This document shows, in pieces, positions 6,405 through 61,141 of a stretch of DNA of 64,000 nucleotides. The stretch covers positions 29,825 through 93,824 of the forward strand of contig JAMLHE010000013.1 of the NCBI GenBank assembly GCA_023957315.1. Direction: 5' to 3'. The notes under the pieces are model-generated. The model did not search any database. It was not told the DNA's origin and was given only the letters and a program-made list of their open reading frames with translations. The first letter of the stretch is position 1. Every line of letters starts with the position of its first letter. The position numbers and the translations under genes are program-made. Source of the DNA: Candidatus Kapaibacterium sp. GTDB lineage: Bacteria; Bacteroidota; Ignavibacteria; Kapaibacteriales; UBA2268.

Positions 6405-6430
6405 TTTAGACTCCTTAATAAATTGATGGT

Positions 6431-8401: not shown

Positions 8402-8445
8402 AATTTCTCCGTTTCAATTTGAAGAATGATTTATCTAATTTTGAT

Positions 8446-9477: not shown

Positions 9478-9887
9478 ATACCTCGAAAAATTTGTAATTA
9501 AAGACTAATCTATCGGTTTGAAGTCAGGAAATTGGATTACCTAAGACCCTATAAATCATATTTCGTCTGAAATAAAAATTAAAATGTCAAATCAAACATG
9601 ATTCTAAAATATATAAATATTGGTAAATAAAAAAAATATTTTTGATTTCTTGAAAAATTATAAGCATTTGAAATGTTGATAATTAGCCAATTTGATATAA
9701 ATATATTTATTGTGAATTTATTCTATTTTAAAATGAATAAAAATCACTTAATAAATAACCCTGACTATATTAAACGATATTAATTTCACAAGCAAGTATA
9801 AAATATTAAGAAAAATTAATTTGCACAGTAGTATTTTTTTTTTTAAGTTTACATATCACTTTCAAAACATTTTTTTAGGAGCTAATT
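9478..9887. other. Divergent AT-rich intergenic region between the two halves of surface locus 1
   Basis: About 410 bases, very AT-rich, separating the minus-strand beta-helix/YEYW genes from the plus-strand fiber gene. It holds the candidate promoter of the fiber gene (TTTG 9820-9823, TAAGTTTA 9844-9851) and an AGGAG ribosome site at 9877-9881. I found no clear promoter for the leftward genes and no RNA gene. Confidence 0.5.
9820..9851 (+). promoter_or_regulatory. Candidate promoter of the locus-1 fiber gene
   Basis: TTTG at 9820-9823 and TAAGTTTA at 9844-9851, spacer exactly 20 bases; the -7 element differs from TAnnTTTG only in the last base. A run of T lies in the spacer. The start codon is 37 bases further on. 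Confidence 0.45.
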
Positions 9888-12629: not shown

Positions 12630-12630
12630 A

Positions 12631-21250: not shown

Positions 21251-21349
21251 TAAAAGCACAAAAATCGGACGGAAATAGCCCAAATACAAATCATTGATTT
21301 GAAATTCATTACTAATAATTGTACTTCTCGATTCAGAATAATTTAGAAT

Positions 21350-42505: not shown

Positions 42506-44071
42506 CTAATTCTCCGGATATGTCAACGTCGCTCCGCTTATTAGGTAAATCTGATAGCCTTGCCCCGGGAGCATATCGCCAATCATGTTGATATCGAAAG
42601 CGGGATAGAAGACGTTGCCCATGTTGTCCTTTGCGATTACGAGTTTATCATCAGCAACGAGCGAAGCAAGGGCAATCTCAATATCCATAGCATTATCGCG
42701 TAGGTATGCGAGCATATTCCAACCCGTTGTGAGAGTGATTTCAGTCGTTTCAGGTACAACTTTCTCGCCCGAAATCGTGAGTGTTTCAGCGCTCGACATA
42801 TAGACTTGATAGCCCTGCTTCACGTCCCAATTTCCAATATCGTTAATATCAAACTCGGGATAGTAAATCTGCCCGGAATTATTCTTCACGATGACGGTAC
42901 TTCCCTCAATTGCGGAGAAAACATTTTCGAGTGCAGCAAATTCCGGTTCAACATATGTAGAAATCAGATTCCAACCGAGGTTGAGTGTAATGTTGTGTTC
43001 GAAAATATCTATTGATTCAAAATCAATTATTTTAATATTTTGAATTGATATGCTCTCGACCATACCATTTTTGAAATATATCATTAACGAATCATTTGCA
43101 GAAACTGACCCTACAATACAACGAACTGAAAAGCCTTTAACCCTACTAGTGTACCAACTGTCTAGAATAGAGCTCCAGTTGATCAAGTACCTCCAATAGG
43201 CGCCCGACCCTTGGCTTGCAGAAGCCGTCCACCAGTTACCTCCTGAATTTAGACCGTTGAAGCCACCATTTAATTCACGTAAACCGCCAGGAAGAGAGGA
43301 AAAGCCACTGCTGTTATTAGAATTTAAGTTATTTCCAATACAACAAGTTGCATTATTAGTATTCCACCTCTCCTTTGCTGCAAGCGACTTTGCGATAAGG
43401 TGATTGTTATTGTTGCACCAATATTGGTTATTAGTTCTTAAATAGGAATGTAGTGTTGACCAATCCACTTCACTCGGTATAAGATAGCCGGATGGTGCTA
43501 ATCCACGTGAATCATTTACTGCATACCAGTTATACAGTTTCCCGTATATTGCACCGTTGGCAGGGTCATTGTCGTAATAACACCAGGCACCTTCATTTTT
43601 ATTTCCAGCATCTACCCAGTCTGCATCACTTACTGCGTGTCGTATTGTATCGCCATTTCGGTAATGACTTAAATCAAGATTTTTAACCATCCAAACTTGA
43701 TTGCCAATGGTTACAGTTTCGAAATTGTCCTGATTTTGAATGAATATGATACTGTCTATATCTGATACTAAATAGGACTTAGTTAAGTCAGAATAATAAA
43801 TGTTAAAGTACTTTAAATCATTTCCGGTTAGAAATTTCAACGAATCTAATGCCGATATCTGATATGATGCAGATGAATCTATCTTGTAATATACTTTCAT
43901 TGTATAGTTATTATTGAATTTTTTAATCTCTAATTTATCGATATCATTAATATCATATACTATTGTATCATTGCTAGCATTTGTAGAAAATTTTATCATA
44001 GTTTTTGAAGCTGAATATGTTACTACAAATGATAAAAACAAGATACATAAAGCTGTTATAACTCTCTTCAT
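42506..44071 (-). CDS. Secreted FISUMP-domain protein with tandem GWN C-terminal modules
   Basis: 521 residues from the ATG at 44069-44071 (MKRVITAL), which has GGAG six bases upstream; the earlier ATG at 44083 has none. Signal peptide, an N-terminal region (about 22-115) of unknown fold with repeated LDSLKF/DSIIFI-type strands, a FISUMP domain (about 120-325: VTIGNQVWMVKNLDLSHYRNG ... GFSVRCI), then two GWN modules (GWNLISTYVEPEF... and GWNMLAYL...) to the end, almost identical in DNA to those of the genes at 44264 and 47467. This swaps a GWN tail onto a FISUMP domain, showing the tail is a portable unit. Confidence 0.7.
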   Translation of the reverse strand: MKRVITALCILFLSFVVTYSASKTMIKFSTNASNDTIVYDINDIDKLEIKKFNNNYTMKVYYKIDSSASYQISALDSLKFLTGNDLKYFNIYYSDLTKSYLVSDIDSIIFIQNQDNFETVTIGNQVWMVKNLDLSHYRNGDTIRHAVSDADWVDAGNKNEGAWCYYDNDPANGAIYGKLYNWYAVNDSRGLAPSGYLIPSEVDWSTLHSYLRTNNQYWCNNNNHLIAKSLAAKERWNTNNATCCIGNNLNSNNSSGFSSLPGGLRELNGGFNGLNSGGNWWTASASQGSGAYWRYLINWSSILDSWYTSRVKGFSVRCIVGSVSANDSLMIYFKNGMVESISIQNIKIIDFESIDIFEHNITLNLGWNLISTYVEPEFAALENVFSAIEGSTVIVKNNSGQIYYPEFDINDIGNWDVKQGYQVYMSSAETLTISGEKVVPETTEITLTTGWNMLAYLRDNAMDIEIALASLVADDKLVIAKDNMGNVFYPAFDINMIGDMLPGQGYQIYLISGATLTYPEN

Positions 44072-44221
44072 AGCGAACTCCATAATTTAAAAAAAAATCA
44101 AATCGTCAATCTCAAATATCTTGTTAATACAATGTTGAATAATGCTTTAGAAACATAAATCAAATTGTTTGTGAATTCAAGAATAATCCTTCACCTGAGA
44201 AAAAAATGAAGATTTAAAAGT

Positions 44222-44254
44222 ATCCTTCCGAAGCTTGCGAACCTTCGGAAAGAT
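44222..44254 (-). terminator. Terminator-like CTTCCGAAG hairpin after the YEYW-repeat gene
   Basis: Imperfect inverted repeat, arms about 15 bases around a 3-base loop (ATCCTTCCGAAG... / ...CTTCGGAAAGAT). Ten bases after the stop on the minus strand. Same family as the hairpin at 47425. Confidence 0.5.
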
Positions 44255-44263
44255 AAAATTATT

Positions 44264-46048
44264 CTAATTCTCCGGATATGTCAACGTCGCTCCGCTTATC
44301 AGGTATATTTGATAGCCTTGCCCCGGGAGCATATCGCCAATCATGTTGATATCGAAAGCGGGATAGAAGACGTTGCCCATGTTGTCCTTTGCGATTACGA
44401 GTTTATCATCAGCAACGAGCGAAGCAAGTACAATCTCAATATCCATAGCATTATCGCGTAGGTATGCGAGCATATTCCACCCCGTTGTGAGAGTGATTTC
44501 GGTCGTTTCAGGCACCACTTTTTCACCCGAAATCGTGAGTGTTTCAGCGCTCGACATATAGACTTGATAACCCTGCTTTATGTCCCAATCTCCTATATCA
44601 TTAATATCAAACTCAGGGTAGTAAATCTGCCCGGAATTATTCTTTACTATGACAGTGCTTCCTTCAATTTCGGAGAAAACGTCTTCGAGTGCAGCAATCT
44701 CCGGCTCTACATAGGTGGAAATCAGATTCCAGCCTGTATTTAGCGAAATACTTTGCGCAGCCTCCACAGTCGTAAATGACCATACTTCCGACCAATCACT
44801 ATAAATGTCCTCATATTCTGCTTTAATTCGCCAATAATAAGTTTTTAAATCAACTAAATTAATTTCATATTGAGTTACATTTGTAAGCGAATCATACACC
44901 ATAATATTGGAAAAATCATTTGTATCTGATATTTGAATATAATATTTGCTAATGTACGGAATAATATTCCATTTTAAAATTGTATCAGTTTTTATGTTTG
45001 AATTATTGGCAGGGGATTTTAATATCGGTTTGGAAACTTCAAATCCTTCATAAATAAATGTATCCGACACTGCGACACTCCATTTTCCAACTGAATCCAT
45101 ATATTGCATGTGTAACACGTGCAAACCCAATGTATCCAATTCGGGACATTGCAAATTAATTATTTCTGAAAATGTTTCTTCTTTATTATCTAATATTAAT
45201 GTAAAAATAGTTTCAAGATTGTTATCAAACCAATAGCGATATCCGTAAATTTTATTCGACGAATATTCGATTTCATTAAATTCAGTATCATCAGGAATGT
45301 AAAAATAGCTGGTTTGAGCAATAGACCACTTGTCATGGTTATCTTGGAATCTGATTACGAATTTGTGAATTCCAGAGTTTATATTCTCAAATAAAAAGTT
45401 AGAATCAAGATTCAAAAGGGATGTATTTGGGTTTATCGCCCCATATTTTCTATCAACATAATTATCATCAATCCAATATTCATAAGCTGTGAGAGTATTA
45501 TTTGGATAATTATAATTATCCATTAATGAATCATTTGCAGGTTTGTAGAAAAAACTTGTTTGAGCAACTGACCACTTGCCAAAGCTATCTTTGAATCTGA
45601 TTACGAATTTATGAATTCCTGAATTTATGTTCTCAAATAAGAAGTTAGAATCAAGATTCAAAAGAGATGTATTTGGGTTTATCACCCCATATTTTCTATT
45701 TACAAAATCATCATCAACCCAATATTCATAAGCTGTGAGAGTATTATTTGGATAATTATAATTATCCATTAGTGAATCATTAGCCGGTTTGTAGAAAAAA
45801 CTTGTTTGAGCAACTGACCATTTATTTAAACTATCCCGAAACCGAATGTTGAATGTATGAATTCCTTGAACCAAATGTGTTAAATCTATGTTTTCTGATA
45901 AATATAGATTGGAATCTGCATCGTTAATTACATTTTGAATTCTATTTTCAAAACCATAATCAATCCAATATTCATAATTTGTTAATTTATTTGCAAAAAT
46001 AACATTAACGGAAAGAAAAATAATGGAATATAGTAAAATGTTTCTCAT
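44264..46048 (-). CDS. Secreted YEYW-repeat protein with Fn3-like domain and tandem GWN modules (locus 2)
   Basis: 594 residues, same architecture as the gene at 6431: signal peptide (about 1-19), four repeats opening (Y)EYW(I/V)D or RYWFDN and closing KWSVAQTSFFY, an Fn3-like domain (about 345-430, ending DWSEVWSF), then two GWN modules. Repeats 2 and 3 are recent duplicates with a 246-base period in the DNA. It begins nine bases after the beta-helix gene at 46058, so co-transcribed. Function unknown; extracellular structural protein by inference. Confidence 0.7.
   Translation of the reverse strand: MRNILLYSIIFLSVNVIFANKLTNYEYWIDYGFENRIQNVINDADSNLYLSENIDLTHLVQGIHTFNIRFRDSLNKWSVAQTSFFYKPANDSLMDNYNYPNNTLTAYEYWVDDDFVNRKYGVINPNTSLLNLDSNFLFENINSGIHKFVIRFKDSFGKWSVAQTSFFYKPANDSLMDNYNYPNNTLTAYEYWIDDNYVDRKYGAINPNTSLLNLDSNFLFENINSGIHKFVIRFQDNHDKWSIAQTSYFYIPDDTEFNEIEYSSNKIYGYRYWFDNNLETIFTLILDNKEETFSEIINLQCPELDTLGLHVLHMQYMDSVGKWSVAVSDTFIYEGFEVSKPILKSPANNSNIKTDTILKWNIIPYISKYYIQISDTNDFSNIMVYDSLTNVTQYEINLVDLKTYYWRIKAEYEDIYSDWSEVWSFTTVEAAQSISLNTGWNLISTYVEPEIAALEDVFSEIEGSTVIVKNNSGQIYYPEFDINDIGDWDIKQGYQVYMSSAETLTISGEKVVPETTEITLTTGWNMLAYLRDNAMDIEIVLASLVADDKLVIAKDNMGNVFYPAFDINMIGDMLPGQGYQIYLISGATLTYPEN
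45347..45830. repeat. Two tandem 246-bp coding repeats
   Basis: Matching positions are offset by exactly 246 bases (82 codons), e.g. 45347 to 45593 and 45481 to 45727, with few differences. They encode YEYW repeats 2 and 3. Confidence 0.8.
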
Positions 46049-46057
46049 TTTTCATTC

Positions 46058-47110
46058 CTATTCAGTTTGAGATTCAACTTCTACGTTCACTTCAAGCGTT
46101 CCATTCACAGTTTTATTTGCTGAATTATAGCTCTTAATGTATGGAATAATTGGAATACCTAATTCTTTGTATGGATAAGTACCGCCATAAATCCCTAAAT
46201 CAGTGCCGTCAGTTCCATAATCCTTTCCTAAACAATTTTCATTAAGGTGATAATCGAAATCTTCAGAAAAACTATAAATATCCAATGTATCAACAAATAT
46301 CGAATCCTTGTTTTGATTAATAAGGCAATCTACATTGTAATTATCAACTCCCCAATCAGTCTGATTATAAACAGACAAACAATTTACAAAACCGTTATTT
46401 AAGCCCAGACTTTTAAGTTCATAAGTATTCAAGAATATGCAATTCTCAAAAAGGTTAAAAGCAGAATTAGACGCCCAAAATAAACCTTTTGAACCATTGA
46501 CATCAGGATAATGCAGAATACAATTAATATAACTTGTATTGTAAGATTCAAAAATAAGCCCATAAATTGTAGAACCTGGATTGGGGTCAATTATCGAATT
46601 GTAAACTTTGATACCTACAGCTTTCGAAGAGATTGTTGGATTATACAAAACGCAATCTTTGAAAGTGTGAAACTTCGATGTATCTGCTTTTGCCACATCC
46701 AGTCCCCTGATATTACATTTTCTAAACATTAAATTGGAAACTTTGTGAGTTGCAGTATATGAAATTCTGAGTACGTTACTAATATATACTCCTTCTAATA
46801 AAGTGCTGTCGCTTCCTGAATTAAAAATAACAATCCCCAAAATAGTCTTTCCCGTTTCATTTGTTGCAGATGAATAGAAACCTGTCCCGTATATGTTAAG
46901 TTTTTTTCTAATTGTGATAGTTGTGCCGGAAAAATCATAGCCGGGTAGATACACGTCCGAACCAACTGCTGCCGAATCAAGTGCTTTTTGCAACTCGGTA
47001 ACCTGATACAATTTTGCATCATTGCCATTTTGAACAATGATAGCTTTGTAAGAATATAAATTAATTGTCGAAATGACAATAATTATCAAAATCATCAAAA
47101 CCCTATTCAT
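46058..47110 (-). CDS. Secreted right-handed beta-helix protein, paralog 3
   Basis: 350 residues, related to the genes at 5379 and 8446: signal peptide, AIIVQNGNDAKLYQ start, beta-helix coils, DYGTDGTDLGIYGGTYPYKE and the C-terminal NGTLEVNVEVESQ. A well-placed promoter (47224-47254) drives it and the YEYW-repeat gene that follows. Confidence 0.7.
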   Translation of the reverse strand: MNRVLMILIIIVISTINLYSYKAIIVQNGNDAKLYQVTELQKALDSAAVGSDVYLPGYDFSGTTITIRKKLNIYGTGFYSSATNETGKTILGIVIFNSGSDSTLLEGVYISNVLRISYTATHKVSNLMFRKCNIRGLDVAKADTSKFHTFKDCVLYNPTISSKAVGIKVYNSIIDPNPGSTIYGLIFESYNTSYINCILHYPDVNGSKGLFWASNSAFNLFENCIFLNTYELKSLGLNNGFVNCLSVYNQTDWGVDNYNVDCLINQNKDSIFVDTLDIYSFSEDFDYHLNENCLGKDYGTDGTDLGIYGGTYPYKELGIPIIPYIKSYNSANKTVNGTLEVNVEVESQTE

Positions 47111-47223
47111 AAAAGCACTCCCAATATTTTTAAGAATATATTAAAATTCTATGTATTATTCATTAATAGGACTTGTATTTATAATTCACATATACTTTCA
47201 CACTTATGAACAAAACACTTAGG

Positions 47224-47254
47224 CAAATATAACTAAAAAATTATAAAAAACAAA
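47224..47254 (-). promoter_or_regulatory. Bacteroidota-type promoter of the beta-helix/YEYW operon
   Basis: Read on the minus strand: TTTG (47254-47251), 19-base spacer, TATATTTG (47231-47224). Both boxes perfect and spacing typical. Start codon about 114 bases downstream. Confidence 0.65.
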
Positions 47255-47417
47255 TCAGAAATCTCATTCATTCAAAATAAAAAATTATATACAACTAAAC
47301 AATCGAATATTTTCATTTGTCTATATTCATTTTGTTTCTGATAGGAAAAATTTGATTTGCGGCAATATAATAGGCAGAGTTTGGAGACTGCGAGTTAGGG
47401 GTATGAGTTTACTACAT

Positions 47418-47457
47418 ATAAAAAAACCTTCCGAAGTTTGCGAAACTTCGGAAGGTT
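47418..47457 (-). terminator. Strong terminator after the GQ..GFW gene
   Basis: Perfect 15-base arms AACCTTCCGAAGTTT (47425-47439) and AAACTTCGGAAGGTT (47443-47457) around GCG. On the minus strand it is followed by a run of T. Same palindrome family as 44222. Confidence 0.8.
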
Positions 47458-47466
47458 AAAATTATT

Positions 47467-48183
47467 CTAATTCTCCGGATAGGTCAGCGTTGCTCCGCTT
47501 ATCAGGTAAATTTGATAGCCCTGACCGGGGAGCATATCGCCAATCATGTTTATGTCGAAAGCGGGATAGAAGACGTTGCCCATGTTGTCCTTTGCGATGA
47601 CGAGCTTGTCATCAGCAACGAGCGAAGCAAGGGCAATCTCAATATCCATAGCATTATCGCGTAGGTATGCGAGCATATTCCAACCCGTTGTGAGAGTGAT
47701 TTCGGTCGTTTCAGGTGCAACTTTCTCGCCCGAAATCGTGAGTGTTTCAGCGCTCGACATATAGACTTGATAACCCTGCTTTACGTCCCAATCTCCAATA
47801 TCATTAATATCAAACTCAGGATAATAAATCTGCCCGGAATTATTCTTTACTATGACAGTGCTTCCCTCAATCTCGGAGTAAATGTCTTCGAGTGCAGCAA
47901 ATTCCGGTTCAACATATGTAGAAATCAGATTCCAACCGAGGTTTAAATATATAATATGCATACCATCAGCCGTTTTACCGATTGTGTACCAAAATCCCGA
48001 ACCTATAATATTATCTACGTTCTGGATTTTGCCAATTGCGGGCTGTCCTAATGTGCTCCTAAAATTATAATCGCTGTTGGAAACAGTCGTAGCAGAGCTA
48101 CCAACTACATGATTTTTAATTTGATAGGTCTGTGAATGCAAATTAATTGCAAAAAATAAGAAAATTAAGATTAAGTGTTTCAT
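47467..48183 (-). CDS. Short GQ..GFW-motif protein with tandem GWN modules (locus 2)
   Basis: 238 residues, ortholog-like copy of the gene at 12631: signal peptide (about 1-18), VVGSSATTVSNSDYNFRSTLGQ ... GFWYT domain (about 25-75; pattern given in parts), then GWNLISTYVEPEF... and GWNMLAYL... modules. It starts nine bases after the stop of the large fiber gene, repeating the fiber-then-partner order of locus 1. Confidence 0.7.
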   Translation of the reverse strand: MKHLILIFLFFAINLHSQTYQIKNHVVGSSATTVSNSDYNFRSTLGQPAIGKIQNVDNIIGSGFWYTIGKTADGMHIIYLNLGWNLISTYVEPEFAALEDIYSEIEGSTVIVKNNSGQIYYPEFDINDIGDWDVKQGYQVYMSSAETLTISGEKVAPETTEITLTTGWNMLAYLRDNAMDIEIALASLVADDKLVIAKDNMGNVFYPAFDINMIGDMLPGQGYQIYLISGATLTYPEN

Positions 48184-48192
48184 TATTAATTC

Positions 48193-51100
48193 CTATTTAT
48201 TTTCAGAAAATTTTATCAAAAGTTGTTCAAGTTTCCGCTCGAGTTCATCAATTTTGGTATTTTGCGATTCAATTAATTGTTGTTGCTCTTTAATTGCTTC
48301 TGCCAATACGGCAGTCATTTCGGCATAATTAATTCCCATGTAGCCATCGGCAGGATTGGTAAAAGAAAGTTCGGGCATAACATTTTCAAATTCTTGTGCT
48401 ATAAAGCCAATGCGAGTGCCATATTCAGGGTTACTTTTCCATGTAAAACTGACGCCACGCAATTGCATAACTCGCTCAAGACTATTCTCTAAAGTTTCAA
48501 TATTTTCCTTAAATCGAATATCCGAAGTTGCAGTTGTGAGCGTACCGTCGGAAGTGCGGTTAACAACACCCGCATATGCCCCTGAACTGATACTGCGAAA
48601 ACGGGCATTACCGTTTACATCAAGACGCTGACTTGGACTGCTTGTACCTATACCAATATATGCGTTGGACTGTTTAGCAAACAGAGCAACAGAGTATGCA
48701 CTGTTATAGATAGAAAGCCCTGCAGCGCTTGAGTTATTAAAGATGTGCCACTTTGTTGTATCTCCCTCATAAAAACGTAAACCGGCATCTTCATCTAAAT
48801 CCGACTCAAGATAAATAAAACTGCTCGGGTGCGATGAACCTTTAAGGTGCAATCCTGCACTCGGGCTATCAGTTCCAATACCAACACGACCATTTTTTAG
48901 TACCGTTAAGGCATTACTTCGGGTAGAATTTCCCGTACCGTTGCCGATTACAAACAAGCGGTCATTTACATTCCATGATACACCGGATGAAGGAGTGTAT
49001 GTTGTGTTATATCTTCCTATAACAGTTTCATAAGCTGATGGAGATTGTATTTGATTACCTAAAACAAATGAGTAATCACCTGATGATTCAGAATAAATCC
49101 CCATAGCCGTGGAGATATATCCTGATGCTATTGTAGAATACCCCATGGCTAAGGAATTATATCCTGATGCTTTAGAAGAATTCCCCAAAGCTGTGGAGAT
49201 ACTTCCTGATGCTATTGTTGAATATCCCAAAGCAGTAGAGTAAACATTTAATGCTTTTGTGTTGTATCCCATAGCGACAGAATAGTCACCTATGCTATCT
49301 TTATCCCATTGAGTAGAACTTACTCTTCCGACTCTGAATGATGCCTTATCAGGATACCACATCATGCGGGTACCTGCACCAGATGTCGGCGGGTCACTTG
49401 GACCAGAGCCTTTAAATTCACCTTCAAAGAGTATATTTCCTTCATCTGTGTCGGTAATATGGAGAAGAGCAGCAGGAGTCGCAGTTCCAATTCCAATTCG
49501 ACCGTTTTTCAAAATCGTCATTGCATTACTTCGTGAAGTACTTCCGGTGCCGTTGCCAATTACAAAAAGTCGGTCATTTACATGCCAAGCTGAAGGCGTA
49601 GAGGGAGTATAATCAACATTCCATCTTCCCAGAACTGTTTCATATCCTGACCTTGCCTTTGTATTTGAACCCATCGCTGTAGAAGCATAACCCGAAGCTG
49701 TTGAGTTCTCTCCCATAGCCGTTGAAAATGTACTTGACGCCGTTGTACCTCCACCCATTGCAGTAGAAACATCTCCTGAAGCGATTGTATTCCCTCCCAT
49801 TGCAGTAGAAATGCCTCCTGAGGCAGTATTAGCATACCCAATTGCAGTAGAATAATCTCCGGCTGCATCTGAATTACTCCCGGTTGCTGTTGAATAATCC
49901 CCGTAAGCATAAGTGCTATGTCCCATTGCAATGGAATAATCTCCCGATGCGGTATTATTATAGCCCATAGCTACAGAATGGATTCCAATATTTGCTTTGT
50001 CCCATTGAACACCTATTACAGCGCCTGCCCTGAATGCCGCTTTATCCGGATACCACATCATACGTGTACCCGCACCACTTGCAGGAGGGTCACCGGGATC
50101 AGTTGATTTATATTCTCCTACAAATAGAATATTGCCTTCGTCTGTTCCCGTACCGTTGGTATGGAGTAGTGCTGTGGGGGTTGAAGTGCCAATACCTGTA
50201 CTACCATTTTTCAGTACTACCATTGCATCAGTTCTTGGTCCGCCAGGTGTGCCGTTGCCAATCACAAACAAACGGTCGGTGGAATGCCATGATGAGACGG
50301 ATGTAGGAGTGTATGTTGTGTTAAAAGCTCCAATTACAGTTTCATAAGCAGATGGAGATGAAACGCCAAATCCCAAAGCCGTAGAGTAATATCCTAATGC
50401 CATTGCACTAACCCCCATGGCAGTTGTGTAGTTCCCTGATGCTGTTGTACCGGCACCTAAAGATGTTGAGTAATGCCCTGAAGAAGTTGTGTTCCACCCC
50501 AAAGCAGTAGAGTGATTTCCTGATGCCTTAGTGTTATATCCCATGGCAACAGAATAATTACCGATGTTATCTTTATTCCATTGTGTACCGGTCACACTCC
50601 CAACCCTGAAAGCAGCTTTATCAGGATACCACATCATACGTGTACTTCCTTCTGAAGTTGGTGGGTCACCCGGTGTGTCTTTAAATACACCTACATGTAG
50701 TACACTACCTTCACCTGTTCCTATGCCATTAGTATGTAGCAAAGCAGTTGGGGTAGAAGTGCCAATCCCTAAATTTCCATTTTTCAAAACTGTTAATGCA
50801 TCTTTTCTTGAATCGTTTGCAGTGCCATTACCGATAACAAATAAACGATCAGTTTCACTCCAATCTGTTATTGAATTTGGAGTATAATCCGTATTAAATC
50901 TTCCGATGACTGTTTCAAAACCTGATTTAGCAGTTGTTTCTGAACCTAATGCGATAGATTTCGAACCGGATGCGTCGGTTGAAGACCCAATGGCAGTTGC
51001 ACTATATCCTGATGCTGTTGAGTACCAGCCCAATGCAGTTGAAGAATTTCCTGATGCTGTTGTATTTATACCCATTGCACTTGAAAAATCTCCGGAAGCT

Positions 51101-52032: not shown

Positions 52033-52049
52033 TGTACTTTCCCTTTTAT

Positions 52050-53639
52050 TTATTTATTTTCAGAAAATTTATGCAAAAGTTGTTCGAGTTTCCGCTCGAG
52101 TTCATCAATTCTCTTCTCTTGCTCCTCATTTATCGTTAGTTGCTTATCAATTCTCTTATTCTGTTCATCTATAATAGCTTGCTGCTCCTTCATAGCTTCA
52201 ACTAATACAGCGGTCATCTCAGCATAATTAATTCCCATAAAGCCATCGGTAGGGTTAATAAAAGCAAGCTCGGGCATAACTTTTTCAAATTCTTGTGCTA
52301 TAAAGCCAATACGAGTACCGTATTCGGGATTACTTTTCCATGTGAAACTGACACCGCGTAACTGCTTCACCCGCTCAAGACTATTTTCTAAAGTTAAGAT
52401 ATTTTCCTTAAATCGAATATCTGAAGTAGCAGTGGTGAGCGTTCCGTCGGATTTACGATTTAATACTCCGTGATATGCATCAGAAGCTATACTGCGAAAA
52501 CGTGCATTGCCATTTACATCGAGGTTTTGGGTGGGCGCAGAGGTATTGATACCCACTTGCCGTCCTTTTACAATCATAGCAACAAACCAGTTCGGGTCAT
52601 ACCCATCGCAACGCAACGAATATCCATCACCTTCCTGAATAGAAAGAATAGTTCCATCGCTTGAGTTAGTGGAAGCCCTGAGTGCTAATCCCGATGAATG
52701 AGTATTCTCAAAAAAGCCCGTAGAATTGGTTCCGCCCGAGACGCTTGAAACTACCCTAAGCCTATTACCGCCCGGATTAATTGTACCAATTCCGGTGTTG
52801 CCATTTTTCAAAACAGTCATTGCATTATGCTTGTTGGATTCACTTGTTCCGACGCCTATCTCAAATATTGGGTCGGTTAAAGTCCAATTATTGGCTTCAC
52901 CATTGCCAATATTATATCTCCCAATAGCTGTTGATGCCAATGCAGATGCAGTTGTTTGATGCCCAATAGCCGTGGAATAATTTCCCGAAGCGTTTGTGCT
53001 GCTTCCCATTGCCGTGGAATGATTTCCCGAAGCGTTTGTGCTGCTTCCCATTGCCGTGGACCAATCTCCCGAAGCGTTTGTGCTGCTTCCCATTGCAGTT
53101 GAATAATTTGCAGAAGCGGTTGTGCTGGCTCCCATTGCCGTAGAAAAATTTGCCGAAGCGTTAGTTCCGCTTCCAATGGCAACGGTATAAAATCCCGAAG
53201 CGGAAGCACCAGAACCAATTGCCGTGGTACGAAATCCCGAAGCGGTAGTATTATATCCCATTGCCGTGGAAACATCTCCCGATGCTGTTGTTTCTAATCC
53301 CATTGCCGTGGAATAATATCCCTTTGCCTTGGTGTCATAACCCAATGCCACGGAATAAATTCCAATACTGTCTTTGTTCCAATTTGTACCGGTTACATGT
53401 CCAACCCTAAATGCACCCTTATCGGGGTACCACATCATACGGGTTCCAGTTCCCGAAACTGGCGGGTCGCCGGGATCTGGGAGCTTACTCTGACCAACAA
53501 ACAGCACATTGCCTTGGCCTGTGCCTGTTCCGTTGGTATGAAGAAGTGCCGTTGGAACATCGGTGCCAATTCCTGTATTTCCGCTTTTCAGTACTGTAAT
53601 GGCATTGCTTGGTGTGCTGCTGGTACCGTTCGCCACCAC
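52050..53639 (-). CDS. Fiber 2, C-terminal part after a frameshift (YadA-head repeats and S74 chaperone)
   Basis: 529 residues. No signal peptide of its own; the first residues (MVANGTSSTPSNAITVLKSGN) are the middle of the repeated DRLFV(I/V)xNG...VLKNG segment, so it is the continuation of the reading frame at 53588-55630. It contains one ALLHT supermodule with many ASG repeats and an S74 domain (Ser406, Lys411 in SDIRFKENI), then a long coiled coil ending LEQLLHKFSENK. Joined in frame, the gene spans 52050-55630 and would encode about 1190 residues. Confidence 0.7.
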   Translation of the reverse strand: MVANGTSSTPSNAITVLKSGNTGIGTDVPTALLHTNGTGTGQGNVLFVGQSKLPDPGDPPVSGTGTRMMWYPDKGAFRVGHVTGTNWNKDSIGIYSVALGYDTKAKGYYSTAMGLETTASGDVSTAMGYNTTASGFRTTAIGSGASASGFYTVAIGSGTNASANFSTAMGASTTASANYSTAMGSSTNASGDWSTAMGSSTNASGNHSTAMGSSTNASGNYSTAIGHQTTASALASTAIGRYNIGNGEANNWTLTDPIFEIGVGTSESNKHNAMTVLKNGNTGIGTINPGGNRLRVVSSVSGGTNSTGFFENTHSSGLALRASTNSSDGTILSIQEGDGYSLRCDGYDPNWFVAMIVKGRQVGINTSAPTQNLDVNGNARFRSIASDAYHGVLNRKSDGTLTTATSDIRFKENILTLENSLERVKQLRGVSFTWKSNPEYGTRIGFIAQEFEKVMPELAFINPTDGFMGINYAEMTAVLVEAMKEQQAIIDEQNKRIDKQLTINEEQEKRIDELERKLEQLLHKFSENK

Positions 53640-55630
53640 AAAGAGGCGGTCTGAAGCATCCCAAGTATTCGCTTTTTTGGGTGTATATTCTTCGTTGTAG
53701 GCACCAATAACTGTTTCGGCATACGATGGGATGGTGCGCTCAAATTGAATCCTATTACAGCGGAATAGTCGCCGGTTGCACTGTTTTCCATGCCCATTGC
53801 CACTGATGCCTCGCCTGTTGAGTTCAGGTAGCCGCCGATTGCAACTGAAAAATTGCCGGAGGCATTCACCTCGGTTCCCATAGCAAAAGCATAATCGCCA
53901 TCGGCAGAAGCCTCGGCTCCCATGGCAAATGCATAATCGCCGGAAGCCATTCCGCCATTACCCAAAGCCACTGAAGCTTGCCCGGAAGCCGAGTTGCTTC
54001 CACCGGCTGCAAATGAATAGAGACCTTGAGCAATGCTGCCATATCCCAGCGCAACAGAGTAGTTGCCTATATTGTTCTTGTCCCATGCAGTACCACCAAC
54101 ATAGCCTGCTCTGAAAGCACCCTTGTCGGGGTACCACATCATACGGGTTCCAGTTCCCGATGCTGGCGGGTCGCCCGGGTTAGTTCCTTTGTATTCACCT
54201 TCGTGCAAAACATTTCCTTCTCCCTGCCCTTGGCCAAGTGTGTGCAACAAAGCCGAAGGTGTACTGGTTCCGATACCTATGTTGCCATTTTTTAGCACAA
54301 CCATTGCATCGCTTGGCGAGTCAAAACCGCTTCCAATTACAAACAGGCGGTCATTTGGATTCCATGAAGTGGTTGAACTCGGCTCATAATCAGTGTTCCA
54401 CCCTCCCACTGCTGTTTCAAAAGCAGATTTGGCTGTTGCGCCATTTCCAATTGCCGTGGAAAAAAATCCAGAGGCGGTAGTGGTAAATCCTAATGCCATC
54501 GAATTTTTCCCCAGAGCTTTTGTATTGTACCCAATTGCAGTGGCATCCGATCCCCTTGCCTTGCTATTATAACCCATCGCAATAGAATAGATTCCTATAC
54601 TATCTTTATCCCATTGGGTAGCAGTTACACCGCCAACCCTGAATGCAGCCTTGTCAGGGTACCACATCATACGTGTGCCGGCTCCTTGAGCAGGAGGTTC
54701 TCCCGGATCAGTTGATTTATATTCTCCCACAAACAACACACTCCCCTCTCCGGTGCCGATGCCGTTAATGTGTAGCAAAGCAGACGGTGTTTCAGTGCCA
54801 ATTCCAACATTGCCTTTCCTATATATAGAAGAGTCAGGATTTGCTTCACCATTCCATTTGGGGTCTGTTTCAGTATAACTTTTTAGATAACCTTCTGTTG
54901 AATGGTCACCCCAACCGTGTGCATTATTCCAGTTTGAAATATCGGTATTTGATATTCCTGCTGATGCACTTGCACTAAACACAGGGTCTGTTTCGGTAAA
55001 TGATTTCAAATATCCTTCAGTGGAATGGTCACCCCAAGAGTGGGCTGTATTCCAGTTCAGAATATCGGTATTTAAAATGCCCGCTGCGGGGCTAGCGGAA
55101 AATAGCGGGTCCATTTCGGTAAATGATTTCAAATATCCTTCAGTGGAATGGTCACCCCAAGAGTAGGCTGCATTCCAGTTTGTAATATCAGTATTTAATA
55201 TGCCCGATGCCGGACTTGCAGTAAATAGAGGGTCGCTTTCGGTTATAGAACCCGTTATACTTTCTGCCGTCTTTGAATGCAGTGCATACGGCACAGAACT
55301 AAGTTTAATCCTTGGAAGCGGAGTGCCGGTTCCTACGGTGATTTCGAGCCAGTATTCATCAGCGAAATTAATACTAAAAGGTGTAACGCTTCCAAGAGTA
55401 AGATTAACAAGTCCGTCAACGATTACTACGCTGCTGTGTGTTTCGTTCCAAATAGCGGTGCCGCCCGTAGCGACATCGTATAACTTGACAGTCAGGCTAT
55501 ATGTGCCCGAAAGATTTTTTGAATCAGCATCCTGCAAAATCCCCTGCCAGCTAATGGTTTGGGGAATTTGTGCTGATAAATTCAAAACAGAAAAAAATAT
55601 CGCTGTAATTATGAGGAAAGTTTTTTTCAT
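53588..55630 (-). CDS. Fiber 2, N-terminal part (frameshifted at about 53725-53734)
   Basis: Intact signal peptide, ISWQG domain (about 20-125), three WN-A-x-WGDH repeats, and two ALLHT supermodules with YadA-like ASG repeats. After FNLSAPSH the frame is lost and the last about 45 residues are out of frame (PKQLLVPTTKN...). In the other frame the expected SYAETVIGAYNEEYTP...DRLFVVANG follows directly. The cause is a 5-base duplication GATGG-GATGG (plus strand 53725-53734). Either a real frameshift (possibly slippage-driven) or an assembly error. Confidence 0.7.
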   Translation of the reverse strand: MKKTFLIITAIFFSVLNLSAQIPQTISWQGILQDADSKNLSGTYSLTVKLYDVATGGTAIWNETHSSVVIVDGLVNLTLGSVTPFSINFADEYWLEITVGTGTPLPRIKLSSVPYALHSKTAESITGSITESDPLFTASPASGILNTDITNWNAAYSWGDHSTEGYLKSFTEMDPLFSASPAAGILNTDILNWNTAHSWGDHSTEGYLKSFTETDPVFSASASAGISNTDISNWNNAHGWGDHSTEGYLKSYTETDPKWNGEANPDSSIYRKGNVGIGTETPSALLHINGIGTGEGSVLFVGEYKSTDPGEPPAQGAGTRMMWYPDKAAFRVGGVTATQWDKDSIGIYSIAMGYNSKARGSDATAIGYNTKALGKNSMALGFTTTASGFFSTAIGNGATAKSAFETAVGGWNTDYEPSSTTSWNPNDRLFVIGSGFDSPSDAMVVLKNGNIGIGTSTPSALLHTLGQGQGEGNVLHEGEYKGTNPGDPPASGTGTRMMWYPDKGAFRAGYVGGTAWDKNNIGNYSVALGYGSIAQGLYSFAAGGSNSASGQASVALGNGGMASGDYAFAMGAEASADGDYAFAMGTEVNASGNFSVAIGGYLNSTGEASVAMGMENSATGDYSAVIGFNLSAPSHRMPKQLLVPTTKNIHPKKRILGMLQTASLWWRTVPAAHQAMPLQY

Positions 55631-55644
55631 AAATCACCTTAAAT

Positions 55645-58272
55645 TTATTTATTTGACAATAATAGCATCAATTTTTCATATTTAAGTTTTAAATTATCTA
55701 TTTCATTTTGTTGAATATTAATTTTCTTACTCTGTTCATCTATAATAGCTTGCTGCTCTTTAATTGCTTCTGCCAATACAGCAGTTATCTCAGCATAATT
55801 AATTCCCATATAGCCATCGGCAGGATTGGTAAACGCAAGTTCGGGCATAACTTTTTCAAATTCTTGTGCAATAAAACCAATACGAGTACCGTATTCGGGG
55901 TTACTTTTCCAAGTGAAACTGACACCACGCAACTGCATGACTCGCTCAAGACTATTCTCTAAAGTTACGATATTTTCCTTAAATCGAATATCTGAAGTAG
56001 CAGTGGTGAGCGTTCCGTCGGAAGTGCGGTTAACAACGCCAGCATATGCACCTGAACTGATACTTCGAAAACGTGCATTGCCGTTTACGTCAAGGCTTTG
56101 AGTTGGGGCTTTGGTGCCTATACCAACCTTGCCATCGGGATTGATGCGAAGCAATTCGGCACCTCCTGCTCCGGCATAAAATCGAGTTTCACCGGTGCCT
56201 CCATCGAAGTTAAAATAGAGAATACCGGTATCGAATGCGTTTATAATTAGGTTGTTATTTGTTGAAGCCCTAATGGATGGGCGCGAGGGTGTATTTACAT
56301 AGCCTGAGTAAAGGTCTAGGTAGCCGCCAATACTAAGTTGCTGGCGGGGTGTAGTTGTTCCAATACCCACTCTTCCATTGGAACTGATTCGCATTAGTTC
56401 AACGGAGGAGTTCCCTGCAAAGAACCGTGCCTCACCGCTGCCTCCATCATAATTAAAATAAAGATTTCCAGCGTCAAATGAACTAATATACAGATGTCCA
56501 TAATTTGCCCTGACTGTTGCTGCTGTTATAGCGCTGCTACCTCCTGAATAAAGATCAAGATAATTGCCTATGCTGAGGTCTTTCCTAGGGTCATAACCCT
56601 TGATTGCAACATTTCCATTTTTTAACACTGTAAGGGCGTTGGCTGAGAAAAAACCTGTTCCGTATCCCACCACAAACAAAGGATCTGTAGCTTTCCAGTT
56701 ATACGGATCGCCAAAAGCCAGGTTCTTTTGGCCTACAGTAAAGCAACCATAAGCCTGGGAAGTAAGATCCAAACCTATTGCAGTTGAATACCATCCGGAA
56801 GCGACTGATCCAGAACCGATTGCGGTGGAGTAATATCCGGAAGCAGTGTTGTTTTGTCCCAATGCTATCGAATAATTTCCCAGGGCAGTTGAGTTTTCCC
56901 CAAATACAAGGGTTCCGGGTCCTGAAGCGTTAACAGTCTCTCCAGCAGCAAAGGAACCATCACCTGAGGCGATTGCATTTCTACCAAATGCCATTGAAAA
57001 AAGACCGATATTATCCCATTGGGTTCCATCTACATAGCCAGCTCTAAAAGCAGCCTTATCAGGAATCCACATCATCCGAGTTCCTGGACCTGATATAGGT
57101 GTTGGTACATTGAAGTCCTTTAGATTACCTTCAAAAACCACATTCCCTTGTCCGGTGCCTATTCCGCGGGTGTGCAGCAGGGCTGTTGGCGTGTCAGTGC
57201 CAATTCCTGTATTTCCATTTTTCAAAACGGTCATTGCATTGTTTTTACTGGCTGCAGATGTGCCAATTCCGATTTCAAATACCGGGTCAGTAAGCACCCA
57301 ACTGTCGGGCGTGCCTCTGTCGGGTGTGCCTCCGCCAATATTGTGTTGTCCAATGGCAAATCCTGCGTAATTAGAGGCATTGGTATAAATTCCCGTGGCA
57401 AAGGACGCATAAGCTGAAGCTTTTGTTCCCAAGCCAAACGCAGCTGAATATGGTTCCGATGCAGTGGTTCCTTCTCCTGCTGCCATGGAAGTTTCGCCTG
57501 AAGCCGTTGAGTTGGATCCCATGGCTATCGACCAGTCGCCCGAAGCGGTAGTCATTTCTCCTGCAGCCATTGATGCCCAGCCGGATGCAATAGTACTGTT
57601 TCCAAAAGCGCTTGAATAATATCCTGTTTGGATTTTATCCCATTGCGTATCGCTAGTATAACCCGCCCTGAAAGCTGCTTTATCGGGGTACCACATCATA
57701 CGTGTGCCTGCTCCGCTTGCGGGAGGGTTGCCAGGGTCTGTATAATTGATCTGCCCCGAAAATAGTACGTTGCCGCCTCCATCGCCATGTGTGTGGAGCA
57801 AAGCGGTTGGGGATGATGTCCCAATTCCCACATTACCGCTTCTACTAATAGTACCTGTTGTATTGGCATTGCCGCTCCAGGTCGGGTCTGTTTCATTTGC
57901 AGACTCTGCCGTCTTGGAATGCAGTGCATACGGCACAGAGCTAAGTTTAATCCTTGGAAGAGGAGTTCCGCTCCCAACGGTGATTTCGAGCCAGTATTCA
58001 TCACCGAAATTAATACTAAAAGGTGTAACGCTTCCAAGAGTAAGATTAACAAGTCCGTCAGCGACGGCGACATTACTGTGTGTTTCGTTCCAAATAGTGG
58101 TGCCGCCCGTAGCGACATCGTATAACTTGACAGTCAGGCTAAAGGTGCCCGAAAGATTTTTTGAATCAGCATCCTGTAAAATCCCCTGCCAGCTAATGGT
58201 TTGGGGGATTTGAGAATATAAAGAGCTTCCAAAAATCAAGAAAAATGTGAAAATCAGTACAGACTTTTTCAT
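55645..58272 (-). CDS. Trimeric fiber protein with S74 chaperone (fiber 3)
   Basis: 875 residues, intact. Signal peptide, ISWQG domain (about 20-125), two ALLHT/GTRMMWYPDKAAFR supermodules with YadA-like ASG repeats, then two shorter modules not seen in its neighbours (LSIGNYLDLYSGG and LSIGGYLDLYSGY, each with LYFN(Y/F)DGG-GE-RF-AG), and an S74 domain with Ser760 and Lys765. The C-terminal coiled coil differs (ends LKLKYEKLMLLLSNK). It follows the fiber 4 gene after 17 bases and precedes fiber 2 after 14. Confidence 0.8.
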   Translation of the reverse strand: MKKSVLIFTFFLIFGSSLYSQIPQTISWQGILQDADSKNLSGTFSLTVKLYDVATGGTTIWNETHSNVAVADGLVNLTLGSVTPFSINFGDEYWLEITVGSGTPLPRIKLSSVPYALHSKTAESANETDPTWSGNANTTGTISRSGNVGIGTSSPTALLHTHGDGGGNVLFSGQINYTDPGNPPASGAGTRMMWYPDKAAFRAGYTSDTQWDKIQTGYYSSAFGNSTIASGWASMAAGEMTTASGDWSIAMGSNSTASGETSMAAGEGTTASEPYSAAFGLGTKASAYASFATGIYTNASNYAGFAIGQHNIGGGTPDRGTPDSWVLTDPVFEIGIGTSAASKNNAMTVLKNGNTGIGTDTPTALLHTRGIGTGQGNVVFEGNLKDFNVPTPISGPGTRMMWIPDKAAFRAGYVDGTQWDNIGLFSMAFGRNAIASGDGSFAAGETVNASGPGTLVFGENSTALGNYSIALGQNNTASGYYSTAIGSGSVASGWYSTAIGLDLTSQAYGCFTVGQKNLAFGDPYNWKATDPLFVVGYGTGFFSANALTVLKNGNVAIKGYDPRKDLSIGNYLDLYSGGSSAITAATVRANYGHLYISSFDAGNLYFNYDGGSGEARFFAGNSSVELMRISSNGRVGIGTTTPRQQLSIGGYLDLYSGYVNTPSRPSIRASTNNNLIINAFDTGILYFNFDGGTGETRFYAGAGGAELLRINPDGKVGIGTKAPTQSLDVNGNARFRSISSGAYAGVVNRTSDGTLTTATSDIRFKENIVTLENSLERVMQLRGVSFTWKSNPEYGTRIGFIAQEFEKVMPELAFTNPADGYMGINYAEITAVLAEAIKEQQAIIDEQSKKINIQQNEIDNLKLKYEKLMLLLSNK

Positions 58273-58289
58273 TTTGCTTTCCCTTTTAT

Positions 58290-60665
58290 TTATTTATTTT
58301 CAGAAAATTTTTGCAAAAGTTGTTCTAGTTTCCGCTCGAGTTCGTCTATTTTCATTTGTTGCTCTTGAATAGCTTTTACAAGTATTGGAGTGAGTTTTTC
58401 ATAGTTTAGCCCCCAAAGTTCACCGTTTTCATTTTCAGGTACGCTGACAATTTCAGGAATTATTTTGAAAATATCTTGGGCAATAAAACCAATATCGCTT
58501 GCCCCAATATCGGAAATTACTAATTTACCATCGTCAAATTTTGAATTATGTTGGAAATATTTTACCGGTTGAAGCTGCAATATTTCGCTAAGTCCATATT
58601 GAATTTCTTCAGTGGCAGTTTTAATCCTTTTATCGCTGTAAGTAGTCCAAGCATTTGCGCGTCCTCTGCCGATGCCATCACTTGTACTATTTGGTAAATG
58701 TAGGGCAAATGTAGGATTTGTCACAGTTTGAATACCAATTCTGCCATTTTTGAAAATAATATTTCCACCTTGATAGATGTAAAAGTAATTGTTGGCATTA
58801 TCACTTCCAATTGCACCAACGTAAGAGTTTCCGCTATAAAAGGTAAGCTCCGATAGGGCTGTGGACGCAGATGAAACTCGCAATTTAGCAGTTCCGGTAG
58901 AATTATTTATATGCAAAAGCTCACTTGGTGATGCTGTTCCTATGCCTGTTTTTCCATTTTTTAAAACTGTCAAAGCGTTGCTTCGTGAAGTAGTGGAAGA
59001 GCCATTTCCGATTACAAATAAAGGGTCAGTTGCTTCCCATCCATATAAACCGCCGCTAATTAAATTATATCTGCCTAAGACTACTGAATATGCAGATTGA
59101 GCAGTAGTGCTATTTCCCAGAGATGTGGAATAAGCTCCCGAGGCGGTGGTCTCGTATCCCATAGATGTTGAACTAGATCCTGATGCGGTGGTTTCGTAAC
59201 CCATAGCAGTAGAAGAATTTCCGGATGCTTTTGCATTATATCCAAATGCTACAGAATTATATCCAATATTATCTTTATTCCATTGTGTACTTGCTACACG
59301 TCCTGCACGAAAAGCCGCCTTATTTGGGTACCACATCATGCGTGTTCCCGAGCCCGATACAGGTGGCTGATGAATATCATGGTCTAAATATTCGCCAACA
59401 AATACAACATTACCGCCACTGAAACCTGTTTCATGCAAATGAAGAAGTGCTGAGGGACTTGATGTACCTATCCCTAATTTTCCGTTGATGTGTACATTCC
59501 CCGTGAAGTGTCCTGCCCATAATGCGCCGCTAAAATCTTTAAACCCTATTGCACCTCTGTGATTGCCGTCATAACTACTTCCTAAAAGAGCTGCTGAATT
59601 AGTAAAATTTAAGGAGCTATAACCGGCAATACCGGCTGTATAATTATTGCCATAGTAAGAACAACCTTTAATTGCAGCATCAATACCGATTTGAGACCAA
59701 TTTGTTCCCCCTTTATGTGCTTCTACAAATCCTTCTCTATATCCATAAATTACAGCTTTGTCCGGACCATATCCGGTATTTTGTTCGGAGTGAACAAACA
59801 ATTTATAGCTATTATTATTAACAGCGTTGATTGCAATACTACTGCCTGAATTTTTTAAAAAGTAATCAGCTACCCATTCAGCCCCGTTATGTCTTAGAGA
59901 ATATAAATTTGAACCTGCGGGCAAAGATTGTCTTGTTTCCCAAGTAGCAGTGCCATTGGCGTCGCTTGTCAGCACTTTTCCTGCGCCCGGATTGCCGCCA
60001 CGAATACGCACTTGCCCGCTAACATCAAGATGATGTGTTGGGAGTTCAGTACCGATTCCAACTTTACCGTTTTTCAGCACAGTCATTGCATTGCTCGGCG
60101 CCCAATCACCCAAGCCGTTGCCTATTACAAACAAGCGGTCATTTTCACTCCAACCGAATGCATTTACAGGAGTATATTCAGTACTAAAAGAGCCCAAAAC
60201 TACTTCAAAGCCGGAATGAGCAGAAGTGTTTCTGCCCATAGCTAATGAAAAAGCGCCCAAGGCTTGGGTTCCATATCCCATGCTAAATGAATAATTACCG
60301 GATGCAGTAGTACTATGTCCGGTTGCGGTGGTAGCGATTCCTGTTGAAGATGTATTATTTCCGAAAGCCGTTGCTACATTTCCCGATGCTAAAGTACCCG
60401 CTCCAAATGCAAAAGATGCATATCCTGAAGCAACTGTTGATGAACCAAAAGCCATAGACATATCATCGCTTGCTATAGTATTGTTACCCATAGCAATTGA
60501 GGAAATTCCAATATTGCTCATATCCCAATGACTTCCCGTTACATAACCCGCCCTGAAAGCTGCTTTATCTGGATACCACATCATACGTGTGCCTGCTCCG
60601 CTTGCGGGAGGGCACCGGTCTGTGGATTGATCCCGAAAATAGCCGATTGCCGTATCTGTCTTCAT
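58290..60665 (-). CDS. Fiber 4, C-terminal part (disrupted gene): YadA-like repeats and divergent S74 chaperone
   Basis: The frame at 58290-60665 begins inside the first supermodule (ASGAGTRMMWYPDKAAFR at about residue 22), so its listed start is not a true start. It has two supermodules, a unique middle part (about 270-400: GAEWVADYFLKNSG, AIKGCSYYGNNYTAGIAGYSS) and an S74 domain of a different subtype: Ser677 and Lys682 in SDKRIKT, followed by IGFIAQDIFKIIPE and LWGLNYEKL. The N-terminal part lies at 60767-61141 after an indel-dense zone. Confidence 0.65.
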   Translation of the reverse strand: MKTDTAIGYFRDQSTDRCPPASGAGTRMMWYPDKAAFRAGYVTGSHWDMSNIGISSIAMGNNTIASDDMSMAFGSSTVASGYASFAFGAGTLASGNVATAFGNNTSSTGIATTATGHSTTASGNYSFSMGYGTQALGAFSLAMGRNTSAHSGFEVVLGSFSTEYTPVNAFGWSENDRLFVIGNGLGDWAPSNAMTVLKNGKVGIGTELPTHHLDVSGQVRIRGGNPGAGKVLTSDANGTATWETRQSLPAGSNLYSLRHNGAEWVADYFLKNSGSSIAINAVNNNSYKLFVHSEQNTGYGPDKAVIYGYREGFVEAHKGGTNWSQIGIDAAIKGCSYYGNNYTAGIAGYSSLNFTNSAALLGSSYDGNHRGAIGFKDFSGALWAGHFTGNVHINGKLGIGTSSPSALLHLHETGFSGGNVVFVGEYLDHDIHQPPVSGSGTRMMWYPNKAAFRAGRVASTQWNKDNIGYNSVAFGYNAKASGNSSTAMGYETTASGSSSTSMGYETTASGAYSTSLGNSTTAQSAYSVVLGRYNLISGGLYGWEATDPLFVIGNGSSTTSRSNALTVLKNGKTGIGTASPSELLHINNSTGTAKLRVSSASTALSELTFYSGNSYVGAIGSDNANNYFYIYQGGNIIFKNGRIGIQTVTNPTFALHLPNSTSDGIGRGRANAWTTYSDKRIKTATEEIQYGLSEILQLQPVKYFQHNSKFDDGKLVISDIGASDIGFIAQDIFKIIPEIVSVPENENGELWGLNYEKLTPILVKAIQEQQMKIDELERKLEQLLQKFSENK

Positions 60666-60766
60666 GTGTATGGAGTAAAGCAGTTAAGGGATGATGTCCC
60701 AATTCCCACATTACCACTTCTACTAATAGTACCTGTTATTATTAGTATTGCCGCTCCAGGTCAAGG

Positions 60767-61141
60767 TCAGTTTCGTTGCAGACTGCCGTTTTTGAATGCA
60801 GTGAATGGCAGATGAAAGTTTAATCCTCGGAAGAGGTTCCGCTCCCAACGGTGATTTCCGAGCCAGTATTCATCACCGAAATTAATACTAAAGGTGTAAC
60901 GCTTCCAAGATGAAAGATTAACGAGTCCGTCAGCGACGGCGACATTACTGTGTGTTTCGTTCCAAATAGCGGTGCCGCCCGAAGCGACATCGTATAACTT
61001 GACAGTCAGGCTAAAGGTGCCTGAAAGATTTTTTGAATCAGCATCCTGCAAAATTCCCTGCCAGCTGATAGTTTGGGGAATTTGAGAAAATGAGCTCGTA
61101 ATACAAAAAAGTATTGCTGCAAGGAAAGTACATTGTTTCAT
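60767..61141 (-). pseudogene. Fiber 4, broken N-terminal part
   Basis: Starts with a good signal peptide and the ISWQG domain up to VADGLVNL, then leaves frame: the sequence becomes SSWKRYTFSINFGDEYW and then GNHRWERNLFRG instead of the expected TLGSVTPFSINF and LEITVGSG. Comparison with 57890-58272 shows at least five small insertions or deletions between about 60600 and 60915. Together with 58290-60665 this was one fiber gene. Confidence 0.65.

What the first reader, a model, noticed from the sequence alone, without database searches (positions are those of the whole stretch)
42506..61141. Two distant loci share the same set of extracellular protein families in the same pairings: a candidate undescribed surface system
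Locus 1 (5379-13344) and locus 2 (42506-61141) both contain (a) an ISWQG-domain fiber immediately followed by a short GQ..GFW/GWN protein (gaps 1 and 9 bases), and (b) a right-handed beta-helix protein immediately followed by a YEYW-repeat/GWN protein (gaps 44 and 9 bases). Conserved order of two cassettes in two places argues for function together. None of these proteins has a recognisable T9SS domain although T9SS cargo genes lie between and next to the loci. I infer a co-assembled surface structure made of fiber, partner, beta-helix and YEYW components.
Basis: partly seen in the sequence, partly recalled or inferred. Interest (0 to 1): 0.8.

Follow-up and report, generated by a model that had tools for sequence, protein, structure and literature searches.

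The report
Paired surface genes sharing export tag
Two unrelated gene pairs, widespread in Bacteroidota, each join a large exported helix or fibre protein that has no export tag to a neighbour that usually carries the type IX export tag, which suggests that one partner takes the other to the cell surface.

Summary
The pairings are real and far beyond chance, but the four families are two independent modules, not one structure. Module B: a beta-helix gene (BH) directly upstream of a YEYW-repeat gene (YW). In 345 Bacteroidota genomes BH occurs in 23, YW in 29, both in 22 (p=1e-27); in an independent named sample about 77 of 78 testable BH loci have YW next. Module A: an ISWQG fibre beside a small GQ..GFW protein (25 of 26 GFW genomes, p=5e-19). 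A and B do not associate (p=0.3-0.7). Elsewhere the YW and GFW partners usually end in a T9SS sorting domain (63 of 87 YW ends match TIGR04183), while BH never does (0 of 72); most fibres also lack one. The one BH without YW carries its own. In the window's lineage a duplicated GWN domain sits where the sorting domain is otherwise found. Between congeneric genomes with 91-94% identical flanks, one contiguous block covering the BH body and the YW repeats, stopping before GWN, is only 39-69% identical: both partners vary as a unit. Best reading (inference): CTD-less solenoid or fibre exported or displayed by its CTD- or GWN-bearing neighbour. I found no paper describing either pair.

The parts
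8446..9477 (-). BH2: beta-helix protein, 343 aa, directly upstream of YW1
   Evidence: no Pfam family
6431..8401 (-). YW1: five YEYW repeats, fn3-like stretch, terminal GWN double domain, 656 aa
   Evidence: fn3-like only below cut-off
5379..6404 (-). BH1: second beta-helix gene of locus 1, downstream of YW1, no YW of its own
9888..12629 (+). Fibre 1: ISWQG N-terminal domain and repetitive body, 913 aa, no S74 domain found
12631..13344 (+). GFW1: GQ..GFW domain plus terminal GWN double domain, 237 aa
42506..44083 (-). Fib_succ_major (PF09603, 123.5 bits) protein with terminal GWN, 525 aa
44264..46048 (-). YW2: four YEYW repeats and terminal GWN, 594 aa
   Evidence: AF2 model poor overall, GWN part pLDDT about 80
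46058..47110 (-). BH3: right-handed beta-helix (residues ~22-313) with C-terminal beta-hairpin tail, 350 aa
   Evidence: AF2 pLDDT 88.8, pTM 0.88; best VIA match PL6 lyase 7dmk Z 19.7
47467..48183 (-). GFW2: GQ..GFW domain plus terminal GWN, 238 aa
48193..52032 (-). Fibre 2: ISWQG domain, YadA-head repeats, C-terminal Peptidase_S74, 1279 aa
   Evidence: PF05658 195.5 bits, PF13884 63.6 bits
52050..55630 (-). Fibre 3, split by a frameshift into ORFs 53588-55630 and 52050-53639
55645..58272 (-). Fibre 4, intact, ISWQG and S74 ends, 875 aa
58290..61141 (-). Fibre 5, reading frame broken between ~60620 and ~60910; ORFs 60767-61141 and 58290-60665

Best explanation
Two independent two-gene surface modules of Bacteroidota. 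In each, a large Sec-exported protein without a type IX sorting signal (a beta-helix solenoid in module B, an ISWQG fibre in module A) is encoded next to a dedicated partner with Ig/fn3-like YEYW repeats (B) or a small GQ..GFW domain (A). Shown: obligate or near-obligate adjacency; the CTD on the partner and not on BH in most genomes; GWN at that end in the window's lineage; replacement of the BH body and YW repeats as one unit. Inferred: after Sec export BH (through its conserved C-terminal hairpin tail) binds the YW repeats, and the partner's C-terminal domain takes the complex through, or anchors it at, the T9SS machinery, so the sorting signal acts in trans. In the window's genome the terminal GWN domain replaces the CTD as anchor or signal (least certain step). 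The displayed BH body with the YW repeats is a variable ligand- or glycan-binding surface unit.
For: Co-occurrence and adjacency. CTD asymmetry: 63 of 87 YW C-termini match TIGR04183 and 14 TIGR04131 (may overlap), 58 PF18962 and 24 CHU_C, against 0 of 72 BH. Complementarity: the only BH without YW in the phylum draw (L092) is fused to a LamG-like region and its own CTD and has lost the usual tail. Same rule in an unrelated family: 17 of 19 GFW-CTD genes lie beside a fibre, 12 with the ISWQG domain detected and 5 judged by eye; 11-12 of 20 further ISWQG-fibre loci have a CTD-bearing neighbour, mostly 167-195 aa. Pairs diverge together: Mantel r=0.61 over 100 pairs, and 0.88-1.0 among 3-5 paralogous pairs within a genome. 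Cassette: flanks 91-94% identical, BH body plus YW repeats 39-69%; the two congeners agree with each other (80-88%) and both differ from the window genome. YW-CTD and YW-GWN coexist in congeners G429 and G430. CTD requirement: Lauber et al. 2024 used a fusion without CTD as the control in T9SS export assays (PMC10994853).
Against: Some fibres carry their own CTD (L174, L178; possibly L182 by eye), so the fibre partner is not always needed. Some YW proteins end in dockerin-like domains (L201, L233, L247, L249). Terminal GWN as a sorting or anchoring domain is only positional inference; its predicted secondary structure includes short helices and does not obviously resemble the CTD beta-sandwich. 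Secretion of a heteromer through T9SS is, to my knowledge, undescribed. Adjacency could reflect co-function on the surface after separate export.
Confidence: 0.55

Rival explanations
1. BH (or fibre) reaches the surface by a separate route and only docks there on the partner, which is the T9SS-anchored receptor; the pair is a display unit but the signal does not act in trans.
For: The adjacency, co-divergence and cassette replacement need only binding, not co-export.
Against: BH has a Sec-type N-terminus by a simple heuristic and no other recognised export domain; a BH without YW carries its own CTD (L092).
Confidence: 0.22
2. BH stays in the periplasm as an assembly factor or envelope polysaccharide-modifying enzyme for the exported YW protein.
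For: The beta-helix fold is closest to polysaccharide lyases and epimerases.
Against: Conserved polar residues are mainly Asn ladders with no obvious catalytic cluster; BH and YW repeats vary together as exposed antigens do; BH-CTD fusion L092.
Confidence: 0.12
3. One four-component surface structure of fibre, GFW, BH and YW.
For: Locus 2 order fibre-GFW-BH-YW is kept in congener G429 (L359); the partners share GWN, 91-92% identical at DNA level within locus 2.
Against: No association between the two modules across 345 genomes; other BH-YW loci of the same genome lie far from any fibre gene (L031, L038).
Confidence: 0.06

Closest known systems
Type IX secretion cargo with type A (TIGR04183/PF18962) or type B (TIGR04131/CHU_C) C-terminal domain
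   Same: YW and GFW partners carry these domains in most genomes; the genomes checked are rich in CTD proteins
   Different: The larger partner (BH, most fibres) has no CTD; in the window's lineage the partner ends in GWN instead
Type B CTD protein with adjacent PorP/SprF-like barrel (SprB-SprF, PMC9143113)
   Same: Two-gene surface unit in which a cargo has its own dedicated partner
   Different: There the large protein has the CTD and the partner is an outer-membrane barrel; here a soluble secreted partner carries the CTD
Two-partner secretion (type Vb)
   Same: Large solenoid exported with a dedicated neighbouring gene
   Different: No filamentous-haemagglutinin secretion domain on BH; the partner is a repeat protein with CTD, not an Omp85 transporter
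YadA-type trimeric adhesins and S74-chaperoned phage fibres
   Same: YadA-head repeats and C-terminal Peptidase_S74 in fibre 2
   Different: No YadA membrane anchor; ISWQG N-domain; paired with a GFW-CTD gene
PL6 alginate lyase and related beta-helix enzymes
   Same: Right-handed parallel beta-helix fold (7dmk, Z 19.7, rmsd 3.4, 254 aligned)
   Different: 14% identity; extra conserved C-terminal hairpin; no obvious conserved catalytic cluster

Membership tests
T9SS type A/B cargo | C-terminal sorting domain on the YW partner | tested here: met
   63/87 TIGR04183, 14/87 TIGR04131; 58 PF18962, 24 CHU_C; not met for the window's own YW
T9SS type A/B cargo | C-terminal sorting domain on BH | tested here: not met
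   0/72 in NCBIfam and Pfam
T9SS type A/B cargo | Export depends on the T9SS translocon | not testable with these tools
   needs mutants
Two-partner secretion (type Vb) | N-terminal TPS (haemagglutinin activity) domain on the exported solenoid | tested here: not met
   no such hit in 72 BH members against Pfam
Two-partner secretion (type Vb) | Adjacent Omp85-type TpsB transporter | not tested
   the adjacent gene is YW in nearly all loci; wider neighbourhood not scanned for Omp85
Trimeric autotransporter (YadA) | YadA head repeats | tested here: met
   PF05658, 195.5 bits in fibre 2
Trimeric autotransporter (YadA) | C-terminal YadA membrane anchor | tested here: not met
   fibre 2 ends in Peptidase_S74 and coiled coil; no anchor hit
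Peptidase_S74 chaperoned fibres | C-terminal S74 chaperone domain | tested here: met
   PF13884, 63.6 bits in fibre 2; not found in fibre 1
PL6 polysaccharide lyase | Right-handed parallel beta-helix | tested here: met
PL6 polysaccharide lyase | Conserved catalytic Lys/Arg and metal site | tested here: inconclusive
   no conserved charged cluster in 72 sequences, but not mapped onto the PL6 site

The most novel reading that the evidence does not exclude
The type IX system exports pre-assembled heteromers whose sorting signal is supplied in trans by a dedicated partner gene, and the terminal GWN double domain is a further, undescribed C-terminal sorting or anchoring domain that can stand in for the CTD.
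Probability: 0.3. Interest if true: 0.85.

Novelty: new variant of a known kind. Interest (0 to 1): 0.64.

Why it matters
Type IX cargo is predicted genome by genome from the CTD alone. If CTD-less solenoids and fibres travel with a CTD-bearing neighbour, a whole class of surface proteins is missed, and cargo complexes, not only single chains, pass or are anchored at the translocon. Both gene families of module B are almost unrecognised by Pfam, yet form one of the tightest gene pairs one can find in the phylum, with a BH-plus-repeats cassette that is replaced as a unit between close relatives. The pair gives a direct genetic test: remove the partner's CTD and ask where the solenoid goes.

Tried and rejected
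Four-part single structure: rejected by the co-occurrence table. GWN as a module-specific domain: rejected, it occurs on 15 diverse proteins in the genome and in 29 of 345 genomes, mostly upstream of a CTD. A decayed CTD behind GWN genes: no remnant in the three intergenic stretches checked in locus 2; only 26 and 37 bp follow YW1 and GFW1. Natural BH-YW fusion in L203: rejected, a frameshift in the BH tail. Viral origin: no encoded relative in viral contigs. YW2 structure: mean pLDDT 58.9, so fold matches of the repeats (fn3-like, best Z 5.8) are only suggestive. PDB sequence searches gave only generic beta-helix matches for BH and nothing useful for YW or GWN. Literature searches found no description of either pair; the library lacks most subscription journals and preprints.

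Full report
What is in the window. The pairs are BH2-YW1 and fibre 1-GFW1 in locus 1, and fibre 2-GFW2 and BH3-YW2 in locus 2. BLASTP confirms the families; the two fibres share only their N-terminal ISWQG domain. YW1, YW2, GFW1, GFW2 and a Fib_succ_major protein (42506-44083) all end in one duplicated ~160-aa domain, here called GWN. Inside locus 2 its DNA is 91-92% identical between three different genes, with sharp edges at the domain border; between loci it is 53-67%. Pfam recognises neither BH, YW repeats, GFW nor GWN.

The genome. It is a 3.55-Mb Bacteroidota genome with at least 150 T9SS sorting domains. Congener G429 has contigs of the same lengths and locus content as HGW-Ignavibacteriae-1. 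BH has six copies: five with YW directly downstream, the sixth directly downstream of YW1. GWN has 15 copies; in 12 the protein ends with it, in 3 a sorting domain follows. A contig-end locus shows an S74 fibre followed by GFW+GWN+CTD (L033).

Module B across the phylum. In one draw of 345 genomes BH is found in 23 and YW in 29, both in 22 (Fisher p=1e-27). Of the 7 YW-only genomes, 5 have a divergent BH directly upstream and 2 lie at contig edges. In fetched neighbourhoods outside the window's genome, 38 of 39 BH genes have YW next on the same strand, skipping tandem BH copies. An independent named sample gave 73 of 79 by script; reading the rest adds L193, L203, L204 and L211, leaving L264 without YW and L256 at a contig end.

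Where the sorting domain sits. Of 87 YW C-termini, 63 match TIGR04183 and 14 TIGR04131; 58 match PF18962 and 24 CHU_C; these sets may overlap. None of 72 BH proteins matches any sorting domain. The only BH without YW in the phylum draw (L092) is fused to a LamG-like region and its own CTD and has lost the usual tail. YW+GWN+CTD exists in L211, and in congeners G429 and G430 YW-CTD and YW-GWN pairs occur in one genome.

Module A. GFW is found in 26 genomes, 25 of which also have the ISWQG domain (p=5e-19). Of 19 GFW genes inspected outside the window's genome, 17 lie beside a fibre gene (12 with the ISWQG domain detected, 5 judged by eye), in either order, and all carry a CTD. Of 20 further ISWQG fibres in genomes or contigs without a GFW hit, 11-12 have a CTD-bearing neighbour, mostly 167-195 aa. 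Modules A and B do not associate (p=0.3-0.7).

The pair varies as a unit. Over 100 BH-YW pairs the two distance matrices correlate (r=0.61, 0 of 999 shuffles; shared ancestry contributes), and within genomes with 3-5 pairs r is 0.88-1.0. At the C5 locus the flanking DNA of L038 and sister locus L255 is 91-94% identical, but one contiguous block from about BH codon 55 to YW codon 315 is 39-69% identical, while the fn3/GWN part returns to 83-94%. The two congeners agree with each other there (BH 80%, YW 88%) and both differ from the window's genome (BH 50%). At the C14 locus there is no such replacement, but the window's genome has an extra BH-YW pair.

Structure. BH3 is predicted with confidence as a right-handed parallel beta-helix (pLDDT 88.8), best match PL6 lyase 7dmk (Z 19.7, 254 aligned, 14% identity), over residues 22-313; the conserved tail beyond is a confident beta-hairpin. 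Conserved polar residues are mainly Asn ladders, without an obvious catalytic cluster. The YW2 model is poor.

Interpretation. Shown: two independent, strongly conserved gene pairs; the sorting domain lies on the partner and never on BH (L092 fusion apart); GWN takes that place in this lineage; BH body and YW repeats are replaced together. Inferred: physical binding, in-trans export or anchoring, and the role of terminal GWN. Terminal GWN also occurs in five genomes of three other families, all with 14-81 T9SS sorting domains, so it recurs, but nothing here proves that it sorts or anchors. The nearest published logic, SprB with SprF, is reversed: there the large protein carries the CTD (PMC9143113).

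Noticed in passing
window 52050-55630 and 58290-61141: Two of the four tandem fibre genes of locus 2 are broken by frameshifts; congener G429 has a single intact fibre there (L359 6734-9802).
   Followed up: partly
L174, L175, L178, L180, L183: A third gene of about 660-690 aa follows fibre-GFW in five loci; in L180 it is an OmpA-family protein (PF00691, 72 bits), possibly a three-gene module.
   Followed up: partly
L030 7896-10647: Another pair in the window's genome: a 509-aa protein resembling formylglycine-generating enzymes followed 16 bp on by a GWN-ending protein.
   Followed up: no
L201, L233, L247, L249: Some YW proteins end in a dockerin-like GDxNxDGxVD domain instead of a CTD.
   Followed up: partly
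L211 9093-11183: A 696-aa protein resembling C10 peptidases is inserted between tandem BH genes and YW+GWN+CTD.
   Followed up: no
L191, L193, L209: BH-YW pairs in MAGs labelled Gemmatimonadetes, Verrucomicrobia and Calditrichaceae: transfer or mis-binning.
   Followed up: no
window 19856-21289: Gene whose sequence resembles a phage terminase large subunit, seen by eye only.
   Followed up: no
window 5379-13344: The congeners' recovered BH loci hold no counterpart of locus 1, so it may be a recent gain.
   Followed up: partly
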